Positions 405-31,767 of a stretch of 37,587 nucleotides of DNA are shown in pieces. The DNA is taken from positions 1-37,587 of IMG/VR virus record IMGVR_UViG_3300030098_003895; one strand, 5' to 3'. A program made the position numbers and the translations under genes. The notes under the pieces were generated by a model. That model worked only from the letters and a program-made list of their open reading frames with translations, made no database searches and was not told the DNA's origin. Origin of the DNA: a virus. Every line of letters starts with the position of its first letter. Position 1 is the stretch's first letter.

Positions 405-3400
405 TCCTCAATGCCTCTCACTTCCTGCTCAAGGTTTTTAGTTTGCTCGGATGTCATAAATTCAATATATCGATTTAGGCCGCGCCCAAACTTTGGATGC
501 TCGATCAGCTCTTGCTGAGCGGCTTGCCTCGAACTAAGCCATAATTTTTGTAAATTGAGCTGCAACTTTTCGCGCAGCGATTTAAATTTTGGATCTTTAG
601 CGCGCTCTAATAATTTTTTAATTGTGGGATTTTGCACGTAGTTGGTCATCTGCTCCCAGCCTAGCGAGTGGGCGCGCTTCTGAAACCAGTAACGTCCCTC
701 ATCTGTCAATCCGATTGGCTCATCTAAATTTGGAACCGATATAGCTGCCGGTGCAGGTGCCAAAGATATTGTGCCGAGAATCTTGGCTGCATTGACAACC
801 GGGTCATTGCGATACTTTTTACGATAGATTGGTGAAATAACGTCAGGCCCGTACGCTAAATCGTAAGACTTGGTTTGCGGGTTCCAATTGCCGGCATGTA
901 CGTCCTCACCACGCAACGATACGAGCGGCTTGAGGTCTTTTGATAAGCCCGGCAACTGCCCTTTAACTCTCTCAATAAAATTAGCCGCATCCCTGATAAG
1001 AGGATCATTTAGACGCTCAACATATGCCGCAACCCGCGGCACCAGACTTGTGCCGAGGCTTTCAAAAAATTTGCCCCCATATCTCCTCGGGTCTTGCGTC
1101 AACGCGACGAGATTTGAGAACCCTTCCATAAAAGTTTTATTCGATACGTTGTAGAGCGTAGCTCCAAGTGCCGCGCCGACAACGTCATTAAAATCAACAT
1201 CAGCATCTTGGTCTGAAAGCGGCATCCCGGCTGTATTGACCATAATTTCACTGGCATCAGCCCACGCGCCGATAATAGAGCTTAACGGCTCCATGCCCTG
1301 ATAACTAAAATACTCCCCCCCAACTTTGATGCTGTACGGTTGCCAGCCGCTCTCTCTTAGGATTCGACGCATGTTTGAATCTGCCGGCCCCCCGCCGGTA
1401 ATGTCACCAGTGGCAGCAAGGCCAAACATCGTAACGCCGATACTAGTACCAACAGAAATTCGCGCAATTGCTTCATCGCGAGCTGCACCGCCGGCTTTAA
1501 GCATATTGTTTGTTTCACCCCATGCCAGACCGAGCGGAGTGCGATCGAGAAAACTGTATTTTGAAGCGTTGTACGGTGTTTTGAGAAACGGCACGGCATA
1601 GCGCACCATTGGCACACGCTGCAACGTCTGCAATGCTTTGCCTACGCTATCCATATCCGTTTGCAATGTTTGATACTTTGCCGCGGCTTGGGCTTTTTCC
1701 ATCATGTCGGGCGGCGGGTTAGTAACGGCTTCGGCAATAAAATCTGAGAGCTCCTCGCCTTCCAGCCCTTGCGCCCGGCCTCTGCGAAAACTTTCCTCGT
1801 AAAGCATTGATCGCTGCGCAACCACTTTAAAAAAAACGTCACCGGCCTCGAGCGTACGAAAACTGATGCGACCGCCTGTTAGAACATGCCCAAACCAATC
1901 TATAGTCGTTCCAATGGCCCCGGTCTGCCCAAACGCTTCACCAGAAAATGCCGGGTGCCGACCATCGCGAGCGCGATCAATCTTAAATCCCGGTAGATCA
2001 TTGCTGCCCATATTTGCAAAAGCATCGACGCTTCCGACAAACGCCTCACGTAAAGCTATTTTTTGACCAAACAGCCGGGCTTGCATATCGGCCATTGTAA
2101 ACACTTCGTCAGTTGAGCCGGCCAGCCTTCTAATCTGACCTATGCCAACTGCCGCAAGCCCCTCAATATTTGGAATTACAAACGTGCCGAGCAAGCCGCC
2201 AATAATGTTCTTGGTTTGCGTAATCGGATTGGTAAGCAACGCATGCTGCCAAACCTCATACATGGCATTGAATACTTTTTTGCCTAAACTGCCGCGAACA
2301 AATGCAGCCTTTTTATGTGGCGGTACTTTCTTGGAATAAAGCTCAGCCATTTTGCGCACGTTCTCAGGGCCACCGTACTCGTCGAGCATCTTGCTAAAGT
2401 CTCGAGTACGCGCTTGCATTGAGAGTTGCTGCGCCAAGCCCGGATCACCACCAACCTCGAACACTTGCGCCGGGATGTTGAACGCCCCTAACGCTCTTGC
2501 AATTTCGGTCTGAGACCCCTTGATGTTTTGCTGCAAATTAGCAACAAGCTCCATCTGATAGCGGAACGCCAACAGGTCTTGCTCGCTGCCGGTCTTGGCT
2601 GTTTCGGCTAAACCATCAAGCTTGCGCATTTCGCTGACAAGAAGATCTCTTGCAGCCAACATTGTCTCAGCCAACCCTTGGCCTTCGACCTCAATAGTTT
2701 GGCCTTGTTGCCTGTTTAAAATAGCATCGCGTAGTTTGCTCGGTCGTTGCCCAAGCAGGTTCGCCATCTGGCGCGTTGCTTCGTGGGTAATCTCTCCGCG
2801 TTTTGCCTCATTGATGTTGCCGGCATACTTCTGCGAGATCGACTCCATACGCTCTTGGATGCCGTCCTCATCAGGCAACTTGCCAGAATTGAAATCAGAC
2901 AACCCGCCGGCAAGCAGCTCGTCACGATTGCCCGGTGCTTTCATTACACCATCTACATCCGCATCATCGACCTTGATGTAATCCTTGTATGGGTCATCGA
3001 TAATAAACTGCTTAGGCGTATCAACTCGCGGAGCTGGCTCAGGCGAAACCGGCGGTGCATCCTCGACGACAGGAGAGGCATCGGGCGCGACCGCCGGCTC
3101 CACCTCGGCTGGGTCAAGGGAGTCATCCCCAGCCTCTTTTTTTGCCTTTCGCAAATCACTATTGATGCCGCGTAATTCTTCTGTCTCTTCTGTCGAAAGC
3201 TCTTGGCCTTCTCTTTTCATTTTATTGAGAACACGCCGCCGCTCTTTTTTATTTTTAATATCCTGTAGCGGTACAGCTTTCTCTTTTGCAGCTCCCAGCG
3301 TTTGCCAATTCTCAATAAACTCACGCCCAAGCTTACTTGGTACGCGGCTCATAGCGACTTGTGTATCGCCGGGCTGCTCGGTTAAAGGCTCACTCGGCCC

Positions 3401-15769: not shown

Positions 15770-17395
15770 TTAGAACTGAGCTTGGTTGCCTTGCTGGAGC
15801 ACCTTCATTGCCGGGGCCGCGGCACCAAGTGCCTCAGCCGTTTGCATCGCTTCCATTTGCTGGGCCTGAGCGGCTTGCTGCTCGGCGCGCTCTTCGCGCT
15901 TTGCTATTACCTCGGCCTCGCCTTGGCTGACCCGCGCCGGCACATGCAATACGCCAAGCAGATGCCGCACCAGACCGTCAAAATCAATGTGGTCAAATAC
16001 TGACGGGTCGATCGATGCAGCCGGCGACAGGATCTCGAACATACGCAAGATGGCTTGCATGTCATCTTGACGCTGCGCTCTCGCCAACGGCGACACGTAT
16101 TCGATCTCGATGTCCATATCGCCCAAGATCTCAGGCGGCTGAGGAAACGCACCGCGGCGAACCATCAATGCAAACACGCGATTGATACAGGGCTGAATCA
16201 GCTCGGCGGTGGCTCTCCCGAGAACTGGTCCTAACAGCCGCATCTTGGTTTCTGTGCGGCTGACCACTTCTGTAGCCGTCATCTGTGGGCCGGTTCCCAT
16301 GATGAGCTGATCAACGTAGTACGCTGCACGTATGGCTTGCCGGCGCTGTTCCTCGAGGTTAAGGCCAAGGGGATTGTTCGCGCCGATCTGCAAAGGCTCA
16401 ATTCGGTCACGCGAGCCTGATCGATAGAAGTTTAGACCACCGGGTTTTGTCCTGACGGGGAGAATGAACCCGTCATCGGGAACCATCAGCGGCGGGTCCG
16501 TTTGCTTTTGCGCCGACTTAATCGTCACCTCAGACATGCGGTTGATCATCTTGACATCAGGCAACGCCGTCATGCTCGGAGATCGGCCGTAACCCTTCTC
16601 AAACGAGGATTTTAAGAACCTCGGCGTCAAGTACGGCATCTCGCGGAAACCGCTCTCGCCCAAAATAATTTTTTGATCAGGGTCAAAATACACACTGGCG
16701 AAAGGCATATTTTTCGCGTCAATCTTATCCGCGTCTCGATCGGTGCGGGGCATAACAACATGCACAACCGTCACCTCTTCATGCGGATCCTTCTCTAACT
16801 TTATTTGCCATTTATCGCCAATGTTCTCTTCGCCGAATTGGTCGGCAAGTGCGCGTAAGCTTTGTTTGAATTTTCTGTAAACTGTATCGACCCGGCCTTT
16901 GTGGTCTTCCACAAGAAAACATTCTTTCATGTGCCGCGTCGAAAACCGGATGTCGAAGTCCTCGTCTTCCTCAACAAAACAAACGCCGGTGCCAAACACC
17001 ACAAGGTCGTAATACAGCTCATGGATCTGCTCGTTAAAGTTCGAGCGCTGGAATGCTTTGTGTAAGAGATCGGTGACTTCTTCTAAATATTCTTTGGCCT
17101 CGTCATCTTGGTTCATGGCCTCGTCGCGAAACCGCAAATCGAACCAAGGCGAAAACGGATTGGTCAGCATGCCGTGCAAAGATGCAGCCAAAATTTCAGA
17201 CGCATGTATGGCGGTCGTATCGAACACCAGCTCCATGCGCTTGTCGCCGGCAGTACGCTCGACATTGATGTCGGCTTTGCGCGGCAGAATATAGGTCGCG
17301 AGCTCTTGCCAGTGATGCTCCCACTGGCCGCGCTCGTCCTCAAGCTTGCTCAGCCGCTTGGCAAGCTTGATCGCCGCATCGTCAGGTTGTCGCAT
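15770..17395 (-). CDS. Portal protein (T7 gp8-like head-tail connector)
   Basis: 541 residues against ~536 in T7. Family landmarks are AKRLSKLEDERGQWEHHWQ, YILPRKADI, FDTTAIHASEILAASLHG, NPFSPWFDLRF, YYDLVVFGTGVCFVEED, GYGRSPSMTALPDVKMIN and QMTATEVVSR. It forms the dodecameric ring through which DNA is packaged. The ATG overlaps the upstream stop by one base (TGATG). The C-terminal tail is Gln/Ala-rich (AEQQAAQAQQMEAMQTA), as usual. Confidence 0.96.
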   Translation of the reverse strand: MRQPDDAAIKLAKRLSKLEDERGQWEHHWQELATYILPRKADINVERTAGDKRMELVFDTTAIHASEILAASLHGMLTNPFSPWFDLRFRDEAMNQDDEAKEYLEEVTDLLHKAFQRSNFNEQIHELYYDLVVFGTGVCFVEEDEDFDIRFSTRHMKECFLVEDHKGRVDTVYRKFKQSLRALADQFGEENIGDKWQIKLEKDPHEEVTVVHVVMPRTDRDADKIDAKNMPFASVYFDPDQKIILGESGFREMPYLTPRFLKSSFEKGYGRSPSMTALPDVKMINRMSEVTIKSAQKQTDPPLMVPDDGFILPVRTKPGGLNFYRSGSRDRIEPLQIGANNPLGLNLEEQRRQAIRAAYYVDQLIMGTGPQMTATEVVSRTETKMRLLGPVLGRATAELIQPCINRVFALMVRRGAFPQPPEILGDMDIEIEYVSPLARAQRQDDMQAILRMFEILSPAASIDPSVFDHIDFDGLVRHLLGVLHVPARVSQGEAEVIAKREERAEQQAAQAQQMEAMQTAEALGAAAPAMKVLQQGNQAQF

Positions 17396-17619
17396 CAGTC
17401 GCCCAATTTCGCCTTAGTTGTCTCGCCGGCAACAGAGCCGAGAACGCTCGAGGACAAACGCCGCGGAACACCGCGCCTAATTTTTGCCTTTTTCTTTGTT
17501 GCCTCTTTCATACCTGTACCGGCCTTGACTACCGGAGCAACCGGGACAACCGGTGCCGGCTCAACCGGGGGAGGTGGAGGACTCCGGTCGTCGCCCGTGC
17601 CGGGAATAATACCACCCAT
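17395..17619 (-). CDS. Small Pro-rich protein upstream of portal
   Basis: 74 residues, with SPPPPPVEPAPVVPVAPVV followed by a basic half (EATKKKAKIRRGVPRR). It is probably disordered. GGAG stands seven bases before the ATG, and the gene is coupled to portal by a one-base overlap. Together with the next Pro-rich gene it fills the terminase-portal gap seen in BPP-1-like and related podophages. Function unknown; a minor head or packaging-linked protein is plausible. Confidence 0.62.
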   Translation of the reverse strand: MGGIIPGTGDDRSPPPPPVEPAPVVPVAPVVKAGTGMKEATKKKAKIRRGVPRRLSSSVLGSVAGETTKAKLGD

Positions 17620-17620
17620 A

Positions 17621-17851
17621 TCAATACTCCTTCATAGCGCCGCCTAGCAGTGAAGCGCTGGCGACTTTCTCTTCAGTTGTTAAGCCCATACCGCTCGTCG
17701 CGATCGATGCTTGCGTACCTTTGCGGCGCTTCAAATCCGATCGCAATTCATCTTGAACCTTCGTACCCGGCGCATCGATTGCCGGTGGCGGGGGAACTGG
17801 TGGGATCGGCGGGGGTGGCGGCATCTTTACTTTCGGAAATAAAAAACTCAT
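17621..17851 (-). CDS. Small Pro-rich protein after terminase
   Basis: 76 residues with an N-terminal polyproline stretch (KMPPPPPIPPVPPPPAI), a charged middle (DELRSDLKRRKGTQAS) and a Gly/Ser/Ala-rich tail ending in LLGGAMKEY. The ATG overlaps the TerL stop (ATGA). Similar short Pro-rich proteins are common between terminase and portal genes. No named function. Confidence 0.65.
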   Translation of the reverse strand: MSFLFPKVKMPPPPPIPPVPPPPAIDAPGTKVQDELRSDLKRRKGTQASIATSGMGLTTEEKVASASLLGGAMKEY

Positions 17852-19146
17852 AAACTTGCCTCAAGCGGGTTATAAGAATTATCCGCAATGATTTGCGGCG
17901 CGTTGCGCTTGTCATCGAACTTGTCCAGCCCTACTGCGCAATATCGAAAAGCATCAGCCGCATGACTTGCCCACGTATGCACCGGCTTGTCCCTGAACCG
18001 GCGAGTGCGCTCGTCATACGCATAATGATAAAATCTCAACGCCTCGATACCTTCCCGGCACTTGCCGCGATCGAACCAACTCATGGGTATGAGCAACCTT
18101 GCGGCATGGATCCCATCGTGAATCGGAATCCGCGGCACAATGCGAAACGTCAAACCGAGCTCGTAAGCAACGTCCATGCGGCTCTTGCCGCTGGAAAACT
18201 CTGTTACACTTAAATCGTGCGGCCCAAAGTGCCGCGAATACACATAGTCCAAGCTCTGAAGGTGTTGGACATAGTGTGGCAACCCTTCTCCGCGGCTTTG
18301 GTAATAATCAATAAAATGGTAACTACGCCCAACGCGCTGTACAAACCAGATCGCCGTATAATCGTGGACGCCAATGTCCCAATACGTCTCAACCGGGTAG
18401 CTAGGATCGTACGGTACTTCTGAAATGCGCCCATCTTCATCCGCTTTCTGTAATTCCTTACCCCAGACGCTGCCGCGGGCGTTCGCCACCCAACTGCACT
18501 CAAATTCTTGTTGAAATTGATCTTCTGTCATTGTCGCTCGCGCCGCTGCGAGCTCGTCCTCATCTACAATGCCGGTTTCACTGGCGCGATACATCGCCCG
18601 GCCCCAACCGGGTGTCGTTTCAGCCGCCTCATACAGATCGAAAAAATTGTTGTGGCCTCTTGGTGTTCCTATGAACAGGCAACTGCCCTTCCTGTCTGAA
18701 AGGGCGGGTCTGATAATCTCAGGAAATAAACTTTCCGGGCAGTCGGCAACCTCGTCAATCACGCACATATCGAGGTAAATGCCGCGCAGCGAGCTTGGAT
18801 TTTCCGATCCCAGTAACTGGATTCGGGCTTGATTCTGGAAGTCAGCCCTAAGCTCAGTCTCGTTGTACGTCATGCCCGGTATGGTCGAGCAATAGTGCTT
18901 CAAATAATCCCAAGCGACCATCTTAGCTTGCACTCGTGTGGGCGCTATGTACGCCAATCGAGGCCGATCTTTCGGCTCGAGGATGGCGCGCTTTACGAGA
19001 TGGTTAATCGCCGCACAAGTTTTGCCGAATCGCCGGTGACATGAAACGACATTAAAACGATTTTTATCGATGAGCTCATGTAGCTCTTTTTGTAATGGTC
19101 TGGGCGTATAAGGGATCTCAATGTTAAGAGTTTTTTCCTTAGCCAT
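17848..19146 (-). CDS. Terminase large subunit
   Basis: 432 residues. A Walker A-like CHRRFGKT lies around residues 36-43. A Walker B segment (YLDMCVIDEVADC) lies near residue 130, with the coupling SLRGIYL stretch before it and the FIGTPRGHNNFF motif III after it. The C-terminal nuclease has acidic strands around TYWDIGVHDYTAIWF and HTWASHAADAFRY. It pumps DNA through the portal and cuts it. The ATG is preceded by AGGGAAA. The TerS type suggests headful (Sf6/P22-like) cutting, but this is inferred. Confidence 0.96.
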   Translation of the reverse strand: MAKEKTLNIEIPYTPRPLQKELHELIDKNRFNVVSCHRRFGKTCAAINHLVKRAILEPKDRPRLAYIAPTRVQAKMVAWDYLKHYCSTIPGMTYNETELRADFQNQARIQLLGSENPSSLRGIYLDMCVIDEVADCPESLFPEIIRPALSDRKGSCLFIGTPRGHNNFFDLYEAAETTPGWGRAMYRASETGIVDEDELAAARATMTEDQFQQEFECSWVANARGSVWGKELQKADEDGRISEVPYDPSYPVETYWDIGVHDYTAIWFVQRVGRSYHFIDYYQSRGEGLPHYVQHLQSLDYVYSRHFGPHDLSVTEFSSGKSRMDVAYELGLTFRIVPRIPIHDGIHAARLLIPMSWFDRGKCREGIEALRFYHYAYDERTRRFRDKPVHTWASHAADAFRYCAVGLDKFDDKRNAPQIIADNSYNPLEASL

Positions 19147-29358: not shown

Positions 29359-30513
29359 CTATAAGTGAACGGCTCGGCCCATGCGCTGGCTCAGTTTCCG
29401 ATCGCGGTCGCGATCGTCCAGCCACTCCGCATAGGTCTTGCGCGTAAAGTTAATGTCGGCATGCCCCATCATTTGCGTGATTACCGCATCAGTCTCATCC
29501 ATCTCGTAGATCAAGATCGATGCAAAGAAGTGGCGCAGATCTCTCAGCGTGACGCGATCAACGCCGGCGCGTTGGCAAGCTACGTTACTGCCCCGGTTTC
29601 GCAAATTGTCCATGCACTGCATTTGTCCGTCTTTATTTGGAAAGACCAAACCTTCAGATGGCCGGCCAGCCTTCAACCAACGCTCTTGTAACATCTGCTT
29701 GACCTGCGGATGCATCGCGATCTTGCGATCGCCTGACTTGGTTTTGGTGTCGCCAATTATATCTTCCGCAACATGTTTGCTGAGTTTTTTCTTGGCGCGC
29801 TGCACATGGATCAGCTCGCGATCAAGGTCGATGTCTATCCACTCCAGCGGAGCAAGCTCGCTCGTACGCAATCCGCTTTCTGCAATTATGAGCAGCTCGT
29901 CGCGGTAGCGATCAGGCGCATGCCTAATGATCTCGCTGACAATCTCTTTGCTCAACAATGTTGGAGCTGGTTTCTTGCCAATAACTGGAACCGACAATTC
30001 AGCCGCGGGATTGAGGTTGATGTACTTTGCGCTGACGGCATAGTGCAAAGCTTGCTTTAAAATCGAGCGGATGTTCTGAGCTGTCTTGTTGGTCCGACCG
30101 GCAAGGATCTCATCAACGAGATCGAGCTCAAGCCGGCCTTGATGGATTTCAGCGACCCTGACATCCCCAAACCGCTTGCCGTCGTAAATCATTTCGCAAA
30201 GATGCTCGCATGCCTTTTCTTTGTTGGCGAGCTCGCCGCCGCCGATCTCTTTGCGCCGTACACGCTTCTCTGTGTGTGCGAGAAAACAACTGGCCGGCGT
30301 GAACTTGCCATCGTCGCCGCGGCGACCAACAACCTGCTCAAACGTCGGTGACGTTTTCTTGTTGATATAGCCGCCGGTTTCACTCTCAGCAATAGCCGCG
30401 TTCAATGCTGCGACGGCATCTTCCTTATTCCGAAACGTCGGCTCTTTACCACCTACATCGCGCAGGTCAGCAATCCAACGCTTTTTGCTTTTGCTGTACT
30501 TTACGTGTGCCAT
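29359..30513 (-). CDS. int: Tyrosine integrase
   Basis: 384 residues. The N-terminal arm-binding region has SKKRWIADLRDVGGKEP, and a SAM-like core domain lies around residues 75-180. The catalytic residues are Arg in ESGLRTSELAPLEW, Lys in TKTKSGDRKI, Arg-His in TLRDLRHFFAS (the first His of HxxR is Arg here), His in MMGHAD and the Tyr nucleophile in TRKTYAEWL. It inserts the phage at the tRNA-Met site copied at 31356-31405. GACAGGAG precedes the ATG, and an RNA-like element lies just upstream. The last gene of its leftward unit. Confidence 0.95.
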   Translation of the reverse strand: MAHVKYSKSKKRWIADLRDVGGKEPTFRNKEDAVAALNAAIAESETGGYINKKTSPTFEQVVGRRGDDGKFTPASCFLAHTEKRVRRKEIGGGELANKEKACEHLCEMIYDGKRFGDVRVAEIHQGRLELDLVDEILAGRTNKTAQNIRSILKQALHYAVSAKYINLNPAAELSVPVIGKKPAPTLLSKEIVSEIIRHAPDRYRDELLIIAESGLRTSELAPLEWIDIDLDRELIHVQRAKKKLSKHVAEDIIGDTKTKSGDRKIAMHPQVKQMLQERWLKAGRPSEGLVFPNKDGQMQCMDNLRNRGSNVACQRAGVDRVTLRDLRHFFASILIYEMDETDAVITQMMGHADINFTRKTYAEWLDDRDRDRKLSQRMGRAVHL

Positions 30514-30536: not shown

Positions 30537-30595
30537 ACCCCGAAACCCCGGCCACCTGTTAGGCTCCGGGGCTGGGCGCTGCTGCGCGATGGGGC
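30537..30595 (-). ncRNA. Three-way-junction RNA-like element, copy A (integrase leader)
   Basis: On the minus strand, from 30595 down, CCCC..GGGG closes the outer stem. GCGC-AGCA-GCGC forms a hairpin. CCCCGG..CCGGGG forms a third stem capped by CCT-AAC-AGG. Linkers AUC and UUUC and the UGG internal loop match copy B. It begins 8 nt after the stop of the 61-aa gene and ends 24 nt before the integrase ATG. There is no U tract, so it is not a simple terminator. Confidence 0.62.
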
Positions 30596-30602
30596 TCCCG
30601 TG

Positions 30603-30788
30603 TCAAACGTCTCTTAGCTCGACGGTGAAAACCCCATAGGCATCGTCAGTGTAATTAATGGCATCTTTCACAGCCAACCGCTTTGCGCGATTCACGTCAC
30701 CACCTGCATATAAGAGGTACACTGACGCACCGATAAACTCATCGTTGTTCTCATCGATGACTGCCCAGCTTTGTTTCACGTTTTGCAT
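30603..30788 (-). CDS. Small protein of the integrase operon, 61 aa
   Basis: 61 residues starting MQNVKQSWAVIDENND, with a beta-alpha pattern (ASVYLLYAGG, VNRAKRLAVKDAI, GVFTVELRDV). ATG 30788 has a GGAG six bases upstream. The frame continues to 30839 without a ribosome site. RNA-like elements flank it on both sides. Function unknown. Its place between the operon promoter and integrase suggests a lysogeny accessory. Confidence 0.6.
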   Translation of the reverse strand: MQNVKQSWAVIDENNDEFIGASVYLLYAGGDVNRAKRLAVKDAINYTDDAYGVFTVELRDV

Positions 30789-30812
30789 TTTTCTCTCCAG
30801 TGTGTTGCTTTC

Positions 30813-30873
30813 ACCCCGAAAGCCCCGCCACTTTTTCAAGCCGGGGCAGTGGGAGCGTTTAGCTCGATGGGGT
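30813..30873 (-). ncRNA. Three-way-junction RNA-like element, copy B
   Basis: This has the same architecture as copy A: outer ACCCC/GGGGT, hairpin GAGC-UAAAC-GCUC, stem GCCCCG..CGGGGC capped by CUU-GAAA-AAG with a GNRA tetraloop. Compared with copy A, several pairs change on both sides (A-U for C-G in hairpin 2, U-A for C-G in the cap). It starts 5 nt after the stop of the 96-aa gene and ends 25 nt before the 61-aa gene. Confidence 0.62.
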
Positions 30874-30877
30874 TGAG

Positions 30878-31168
30878 TTAGGAATGTGCTCTAAAAAGTT
30901 TTGCGGCCTCTAATCGCACATTCTCTTTTTCAGTGTTCAGCCAAGGGTGCATCGAAAGCGCTTTGATCATGTTGTCGAGTGCATTGGCTGGTTGCGTCAT
31001 TACGCTTTTAGCTTCAGCGTGTAGAGCCTTTGCCCATTTCTCATTTTGTGTGGTTACCAAGGTGGCCTTAATAACCCTGTTAACTGAGAACGTGACGCTA
31101 AAAAATCTGCCTCGGTTGAACGTCGGCTCGATGCAAAAACCAAATCTCAAATTCTTTTTACGTGCCAT
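30878..31168 (-). CDS. First gene of the integrase operon, 96 aa
   Basis: 96 residues. The N-terminal half is basic and beta-rich (RKKNLRFGFCIEP, GRFFSVTFSVNRV); the C-terminal half is helical (NEKWAKALHAEAKSVMTQ, NALDNMIKAL). GGAG precedes the ATG, and a 17-bp-spaced promoter lies 40-70 bases upstream. Not recognised. A control protein for integration or a small lysogeny factor is possible. Confidence 0.62.
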   Translation of the reverse strand: MARKKNLRFGFCIEPTFNRGRFFSVTFSVNRVIKATLVTTQNEKWAKALHAEAKSVMTQPANALDNMIKALSMHPWLNTEKENVRLEAAKLFRAHS

Positions 31169-31237: not shown

Positions 31238-31310
31238 GCACAAAACGACCGTCAGGTTATTTTGCGGAAACATCCAAAATGATTTGATTGCGGAAAATTT
31301 GCGGAAAAAC

Positions 31311-31343
31311 AAAAAAAGCCGCCTCTTGCGAGGCGGCGTTTTT
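31311..31343. terminator. Strong bidirectional terminator in the att region
   Basis: A perfect 8-bp GCCGCCTC / GAGGCGGC stem with loop TTGC is flanked by seven A on one side and GTTTTT on the other, so it works in both directions. It ends the long late operon (after the HNH-like gene) and insulates the integrase operon. Confidence 0.88.
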
Positions 31344-31355
31344 GGCTTCCAGCTT

Positions 31356-31405
31356 TGGTTGCGGGGGTAGGATTTGAACCTACGACCTTCAGGTTATGAG
31401 CCTGA
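31356..31405 (-). other. attP: attP core: 3' 50 bp of an initiator tRNA-Met gene
   Basis: On the minus strand the sequence gives an anticodon stem TCAGG, loop CTCATAA (anticodon CAT) and CCTGA. AGGTC, T-stem GTAGG / CCTAC with TTCAAAT loop, acceptor CCCCGCA and ACCA follow. There is no D-arm or 5' half, so it is not a functional tRNA but the copied 3' end that restores the target gene after integration. The CCCCGCA-ACCA end is that of initiator tRNA. Phage genes lie on both sides, so this is attP rather than attL or attR. Confidence 0.88.
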
Positions 31406-31548
31406 TTTTGGGGTGTAGTAATATCAATCACTTAGCACCTAAGTGGCTGATACTGTTATAAAGATCGGTTGTTATCAGTACATATCTGGACATATCAAAT
31501 CAAATTGGCTGCGGAAGTTTTGCGGAAATCCGCAAAATAACCTGAAGG

Positions 31549-31767
31549 TCACTTTCGCTTGCGAGCTAAGTTGCGAGCTCGAGACATGATAGACAGATTA
31601 CCCGGAGAGTTGTCAAGCGCGTTGCGATTCTTGTGGTCAACGTCCTTGCCATCGCCTTTGCGAACGCGGCCAGCTTTCATCATTTTATATCGCGCCCGGT
31701 TGCGCGCTGCGCGCTTCTTTTTTCGCGTGACCGACTCGGCAGCATACTCGGCTTTGTAATCTCTCAT
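31549..31767 (-). CDS. Small HNH-like protein
   Basis: 72 residues, very basic. The DVDHKNRNALDNSPGNLSIM segment is the HNH-like core (D-H followed by N-x-x-N-L). It ends ARKRK. Similar small phage proteins are annotated as HNH-type or unknown. The full HNH metal set is not evident, so activity is uncertain. It is the last gene of the lysis block, coupled to the holin by ATGA; its stop falls inside the right arm of the att inverted repeat. Confidence 0.65.
   Translation of the reverse strand: MRDYKAEYAAESVTRKKKRAARNRARYKMMKAGRVRKGDGKDVDHKNRNALDNSPGNLSIMSRARNLARKRK

What the first reader, a model, noticed from the sequence alone, without database searches (positions are those of the whole stretch)
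30537..30873. Two copies of a three-way-junction RNA-like element precede consecutive genes in the integrase operon
Seen: copy A (30537-30595) and copy B (30813-30873) share an outer CCCC/GGGG stem, a 4-bp hairpin, a GC-rich third stem with a capped tip, and identical AUC, UGG and UUUC linkers. Pairs change on both sides between copies: A-U versus C-G in hairpin 2, C-G versus U-A in the cap, G-U versus G-C at the base of stem 3. Copy B has a GAAA tetraloop. Both start 5-8 nt after a stop codon and end 24-25 nt before the next ATG. Inference: a cis-acting regulatory RNA or processing element, possibly controlling integrase expression. I know of no named family with this shape.
Basis: partly seen in the sequence, partly recalled or inferred. 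Interest (0 to 1): 0.85.

Follow-up and report, generated by a model that had tools for sequence, protein, structure and literature searches.

The report
New stop-codon-phased phage RNA element
Between consecutive small genes of many uncultured phages there is an undescribed folded RNA of about 60 bases that sits at a nearly fixed distance behind the stop codon of the gene before it; its shape is clearly preserved by evolution, but what it does is not yet known.

Summary
Both copies exist on the minus strand and fold as described. They belong to a real RNA family with no Rfam match. I found 41 aligned copies (plus one later) in 24 loci from this and other uncultured phages, 1 to 4 per phage. 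The core is two adjacent hairpins, P2 and P3 plus cap: 99% of pair cells paired, 108 compensatory cells, against 19-48% and at most 13 when partners are slid. The outer CCCC/GGGG stem that makes it a three-way junction is only weakly supported family-wide.

It is not an integrase element: the downstream genes are mostly unrelated. It is intercistronic and phased to the upstream stop codon: P2 begins 12-14 nt after it in 27 of 41 copies. That stop has C on both sides (32/41 and 31/41, against 41/150 and 44/150 for neighbouring genes). A Shine-Dalgarno and start usually follow 16-42 nt later. In related phages, gene replacement and loss often break at the elements. No true copy was found in bacterial genomes or isolate phages, with limited searches.

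Best reading: a cis-acting punctuation element in polycistronic phage mRNA, folding at the edge of the terminating ribosome and read by an unknown factor. Fold and placement are shown; the mechanism is inferred.

The parts
30813..30873 (-). Copy B: whole element (P1 ACCCC 30869-30873 / GGGGU 30813-30817; AUC 30866-30868; UUUC 30818-30821)
   Evidence: cmsearch
30853..30865 (-). Copy B hairpin P2: GAGC-UAAAC-GCUC
   Evidence: P2 pairs 100% kept across 41 copies, 3 of 4 with double changes
30822..30847 (-). Copy B hairpin P3: GCCCCG-GCUU-GAAA-AAGU-(GG bulge 30828-30829)-CGGGGC
   Evidence: P3 99%, cap 97% paired with double changes
30537..30595 (-). Copy A: whole element (P1 GCCCC 30591-30595 / GGGGU 30537-30541; AUC 30588-30590)
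   Evidence: cmsearch
30576..30587 (-). Copy A hairpin P2: GCGC-AGCA-GCGC
30545..30572 (-). Copy A hairpin P3: GCCCCGG-A-GCCU-AAC-AGGU-(GG bulge 30552-30553)-CCGGGG-U
30878..30880 (-). Stop codon TAA of the 96-aa gene; P2 of copy B starts after 12 further nt
30603..30605 (-). Stop codon TGA of the 61-aa gene; P2 of copy A starts after 15 further nt
30878..31168 (-). 96-aa ORF upstream of copy B, no family match
30603..30788 (-). 61-aa ORF between the two copies, no family match
29359..30513 (-). Tyrosine integrase downstream of copy A
   Evidence: Pfam PF00589 3.3e-17; PHROG 1 3.4e-52

Best explanation
The two copies belong to an undescribed family of cis-acting intercistronic RNA elements of phages. 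The core is CAUC - hairpin P2 (4 bp, loop mostly NNUA or NNAAC) - CC.A - hairpin P3 (about 6 bp, GG bulge, about 4-bp cap, often a GNRA loop) - UUUC or UGAA - GGNGU. An outer stem P1 closes it to a three-way junction in some lineages, this one included. P2 starts 12-16 nt behind the stop codon of the preceding gene in most copies; the next gene's ribosome-binding site follows directly. Shown: the fold, the family, the placement, the phasing, the mostly unrelated neighbours. Inferred: it acts on the mRNA locally, cistron by cistron. P2 folds just outside the ribosome that terminates on the upstream gene, and the conserved unpaired bases are recognised by a host or phage factor. That factor marks off (cleaves, caps or protects) the upstream cistron from the next one, as RNase III sites do in T7 early mRNA. 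It is not an integrase-specific switch.
For: Core helices 99.0% paired in 41 distinct copies, 108 cells changed on both sides (shuffles 33.5; slid controls at most 13), covariation 0.565 against at most 0.037 slid. A number of copies were not what the fetching pattern matched, e.g. L003:4577-4648, L005:10455-10519, L014:7312-7380, L160:3828-3894, L239:4280-4350. 36 of 41 copies have both an upstream stop and a downstream SD+ATG at close range, against 3.9% of random same-strand positions. Distance from stop to P2 is 12-14 nt in 27 of 41, whereas distance to the start mostly spreads over 16-42 nt. Base before the stop is C in 32/41 (controls 41/150), base after it C in 31/41 (controls 44/150). 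Several copies lie in successive gaps of one operon: two around a 61-aa gene here, four in G004 and in G023; this favours a local per-cistron role. Copies within one phage mostly share the UUUC or UGAA type, as expected if a lineage-specific factor reads it, though descent also explains it.
Against: No cleavage, binding or expression data exist. Stems are short for classical RNase III substrates. A cleavage or stability role does not explain why the bases flanking the stop codon are conserved; a direct effect on the terminating ribosome would. One gap in G023 keeps leader and SD but lacks the core, so expression of the next gene does not always need it. In related phages elements stay more often with the downstream gene (14 pairs) than with the upstream gene (3 pairs), which fits a downstream role at least as well.
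Confidence: 0.4

Rival explanations
1. The element acts on the terminating ribosome itself: a stop codon in a C-stop-C context slows termination, the hairpin pair sits at the mRNA entry side, and translation of the upstream gene controls whether the fold (including P1) forms and so how well the next gene is started (translational coupling or insulation).
For: Phasing of P2 to the stop, C enrichment at -1 and +4 of the stop, UAA/UAG favoured over UGA. P1's 5' strand begins 4-7 nt after the stop in this window, inside the ribosome footprint (own knowledge). Terminator tR2 in E. coli is repressed when only a few nt behind a stop codon and recovers with distance (PMC4824070).
Against: P1, the helix a ribosome would switch, is only weakly conserved. 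The frame from stop to start is mixed (10/12/15), so no fusion by readthrough. SD sites lie outside the fold.
Confidence: 0.3
2. A put-like antiterminator: the RNA binds host RNA polymerase and lets it pass terminators.
For: Similar size, two adjacent hairpins, found in phages; HK022 put RNAs are about 70 nt with two stem-loops and need no protein factor (PMC9378689).
Against: Two copies in a three-gene operon ending at the integrase, and copies in consecutive gaps, are odd for a processive modification. put lies downstream of the early promoters, not behind stop codons. No sequence relation tested.
Confidence: 0.13
3. A self-cleaving ribozyme separating cistrons.
For: Compact fold with conserved unpaired bases in intergenic position.
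Against: No match to any Rfam family, known self-cleaving classes included; the hammerhead core sequence is absent on either strand by inspection.
Confidence: 0.06
4. A folded DNA or homology site for recombination that shuffles small phage genes, with RNA structure secondary.
For: In related phages homology often stops or starts at element edges. G026 carries element plus a 60-aa gene where L111 and L192 have neither. The block between two elements differs between L111 and G023.
Against: Strand-specific placement between stop and SD, stop phasing and base-level context of the stop are explained by RNA and translation, not by DNA exchange. Recombination at gene borders is common in phages anyway.
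Confidence: 0.07
5. One reading: a regulatory RNA dedicated to the integrase.
For: Copy A directly precedes the integrase here; in G001 an element precedes a small gene and a gene that by sequence looks like a serine recombinase.
Against: Most copies precede unrelated small genes.
Confidence: 0.03

Closest known systems
T7 early-mRNA RNase III processing sites (own knowledge)
   Same: Folded RNA in successive intercistronic gaps of a polycistronic phage transcript
   Different: Conserved unpaired sequence, two short hairpins, phasing to the stop codon; cleavage untested
HK022 put RNA (PMC9378689)
   Same: About 70 nt, two adjacent stem-loops, phage cis element
   Different: Several copies in consecutive gaps placed behind stop codons rather than near promoters; no known sequence relation
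Phage boxB/nut sites (own knowledge)
   Same: Short GC hairpin with a 4-5 nt loop
   Different: Second conserved hairpin with GG bulge; no boxA-like sequence seen; no N-like protein identified
Intrinsic terminators
   Same: GC-rich hairpin shortly behind a stop codon
   Different: No U-tract; an SD and a gene follow directly; loops and bulge are conserved

Membership tests
Any Rfam 15 family | Covariance-model match | tested here: not met
   No match at gathering score in the window except a tRNA fragment; no credible match with a loose threshold at these elements or in five other loci
T7-type RNase III sites | Intercistronic position on the sense strand | tested here: met
   36 of 41 copies with both stop and SD+ATG nearby
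T7-type RNase III sites | Cleavage by RNase III | not testable with these tools
   Needs biochemistry
put antiterminator | About 70-nt RNA with two stem-loops | tested here: met
   description of put in PMC9378689
put antiterminator | One copy downstream of each early promoter | tested here: not met
   1-4 copies per phage, in consecutive gaps
put antiterminator | Antitermination through the beta' zinc-binding domain | not testable with these tools
   Needs biochemistry
Intrinsic terminator | U-tract after the hairpin | tested here: not met
   Tail is mostly UUUCGGGGU or UGAAGGCGU
Three-way-junction RNA | Closing stem P1 conserved with compensatory changes | tested here: inconclusive
   79% of cells paired, covariation 0.127 (shuffled 0.065), not predicted by RNAalifold on 41 copies; present in both window copies

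The most novel reading that the evidence does not exclude
A phage RNA module that is read together with the ribosome terminating on the upstream gene (C-stop-C context, P2 at +12 to +14) and that travels with exchangeable small-gene cassettes: a termination-coupled punctuation system of a kind not described before.
Probability: 0.25. Interest if true: 0.85.

Novelty: new variant of a known kind. Interest (0 to 1): 0.62.

Why it matters
A strongly covarying RNA family, absent from Rfam, marks gene-to-gene borders in uncultured phages, including one whose portal and terminase genes are closest to Pelagibacter phage HTVC010P. Its near-fixed register with the preceding stop codon points to a link between translation termination and mRNA fate that can be tested directly with reporters. 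It also gives a covariance model for finding and annotating small-gene modules that now look like plain hypothetical genes.

Tried and rejected
Integrase relatives in viral contigs: none. Isolate phages by blastn: only unrelated hairpins such as terminators, plus chance coding matches. One strict pattern scan of 84,980 species genomes: 13 matches, none convincing. R3 search of 385 genomes of the class of a Rhodobacteraceae MAG gave one chance match, but only 13 candidates per genome were scored, so this null is weak. A UGAA-type pattern in the same class gave 5 matches, none scoring as the element. Pelagibacter phage HTVC010P has no match. Readthrough fusion was rejected by mixed frames. Tests for an extended P1 including the stop codon were borderline at best. 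Terminator and hammerhead readings were rejected on sequence. L033 and L011 were dropped as weak or pattern-driven. A first MAFFT alignment misplaced P2 and was replaced by model-fitted alignments.

Full report
1. Observation. The elements lie on the minus strand between the genes of a three-gene operon: 96-aa gene, copy B, 61-aa gene, copy A, tyrosine integrase. Folding energy alone is unconvincing for A (z -1.13) and moderate for B (z -2.48). Rfam has no match.

2. Homologues. Pattern scans of viral contigs built from the two copies returned several clear relatives among chance hits. A model from copy B alone (R1) found the window's copy A and further copies in the same contigs that the pattern that fetched the contig had not matched. 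Further patterns and models (R2 from 10 copies; R3 from 41 copies) gave 41 aligned copies in 24 loci, plus one more in G024. Copies come 1 to 4 per record, often in consecutive gaps. The other contigs, fetched by chance pattern matches, gave only weak hits, mostly at the pattern itself.

3. Structure. On the 41-copy alignment the core helices P2, P3 and cap are 99.0% paired, with 108 cells changed on both sides and covariation 0.565. Slid controls reach at most 48% paired, 13 such cells and 0.037. The alignment was fitted to this structure, which inflates these numbers. RNAalifold, predicting its own structure on the same alignment, recovers the same core with 9 of 12 pairs showing double changes. 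The outer stem P1 is weaker: 79% paired, covariation 0.127, not predicted by RNAalifold. The tail GGNGU is conserved even where its 5' partner is not. A comparison of 5' CCCC or CGCC with tail type gives p = 0.028. So the three-way junction is real as a foldable shape in this phage and some others, but the family as a whole is a two-hairpin RNA.

4. Conserved unpaired bases: CAUC before P2; P2 loop mostly NNUA or NNAAC; CC and A between hairpins; U followed by a GG bulge in P3; UUUC or UGAA, then GGNGU. Nearly all copies within one phage share the tail type.

5. Placement. In 36 of 41 copies a stop codon lies just upstream and an SD plus ATG just downstream, against 3.9% of random same-strand positions. 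P2 begins 13 nt after the stop in 15 copies, 14 in 8, 12 in 4, with a tail to longer distances. The stop is preceded by C in 32/41 (41/150 in neighbouring genes, p = 9e-9) and followed by C in 31/41 (44/150, p = 1.4e-7). Related phages make the copies partly non-independent, so these p-values are optimistic. By general knowledge of ribosome footprints, P2 starts just beyond the edge of a ribosome on the stop codon. A published reporter study shows that a terminator hairpin within a few nt of a stop is kept from acting by the ribosome and recovers with distance (PMC4824070). The frame between stop and start is mixed.

6. Neighbours. Downstream genes are mostly small and unrelated between lineages, so this is not an integrase regulator. 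In closely related phages mosaic borders often fall on the elements. G026 has element plus a 60-aa gene where L111 and L192, 93-96% identical just beyond it, have only a short leader and SD. The gene block between two elements differs between L111 and G023 while both elements are kept. One gap in G023 keeps leader and SD but lacks the core. Pairs of copies from different loci share a homologous downstream gene without a homologous upstream gene in 14 cases, the reverse in 3, both in 4.

7. Distribution. The window phage's portal and terminase are closest to Pelagibacter phage HTVC010P and its group (about 54-58%), which itself lacks the element. An alphaproteobacterial host is therefore an inference, not shown.

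8. Mechanism. Repetition in successive gaps argues for a local role per cistron. Anchoring to the stop rather than to the start suggests the upstream cistron or its terminating ribosome; inheritance with the downstream gene points the other way. I commit to mRNA punctuation by a trans-acting factor (0.40), with ribosome-coupled control of the next gene close behind (0.30), and put-like antitermination (0.13), recombination site (0.07), ribozyme (0.06) and integrase-specific control (0.03) below.

9. Novelty. No Rfam match and no described motif found in the papers searched. Large-scale lists of candidate viral RNAs exist that could not be searched here (own knowledge), so an unnamed prior listing is possible.

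Noticed in passing
window 31242-31555: Likely attP next to the integrase operon: 3' part of a tRNA-Met-like gene (Rfam tRNA 33.8 bits at 31359-31437, minus), a 27-nt inverted repeat and several TTGCGGAA repeats that look like integrase arm sites.
   Followed up: partly
window 15770-19146: Portal and large terminase 54-58% identical to the Pelagibacter phage HTVC010P group, yet this phage carries an integrase and a tRNA-like att region.
   Followed up: partly
L246 (G023) 1950-2040 on the reverse strand: A gap with the conserved leader CTAACCTCCCTCA and SD but without the P2-P3 core: a natural core-less version.
   Followed up: partly
L251 (G026) 1020-1298 reverse strand against L111 6232-6300 reverse strand: Presence or absence of an element plus a 60-aa gene between phages that are about 93% identical beyond it.
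   Followed up: yes
L220:2309-2373 and L229:1721-1775: Copies that lack hairpin P2 but keep P3, GG bulge and tail.
   Followed up: no
L247 (G019) and L249 (G022): Near the elements, proteins that by sequence look like QueC/QueE (L247) and a DNA polymerase III alpha subunit (L249), suggesting 7-deazaguanine chemistry in some carriers.
   Followed up: no
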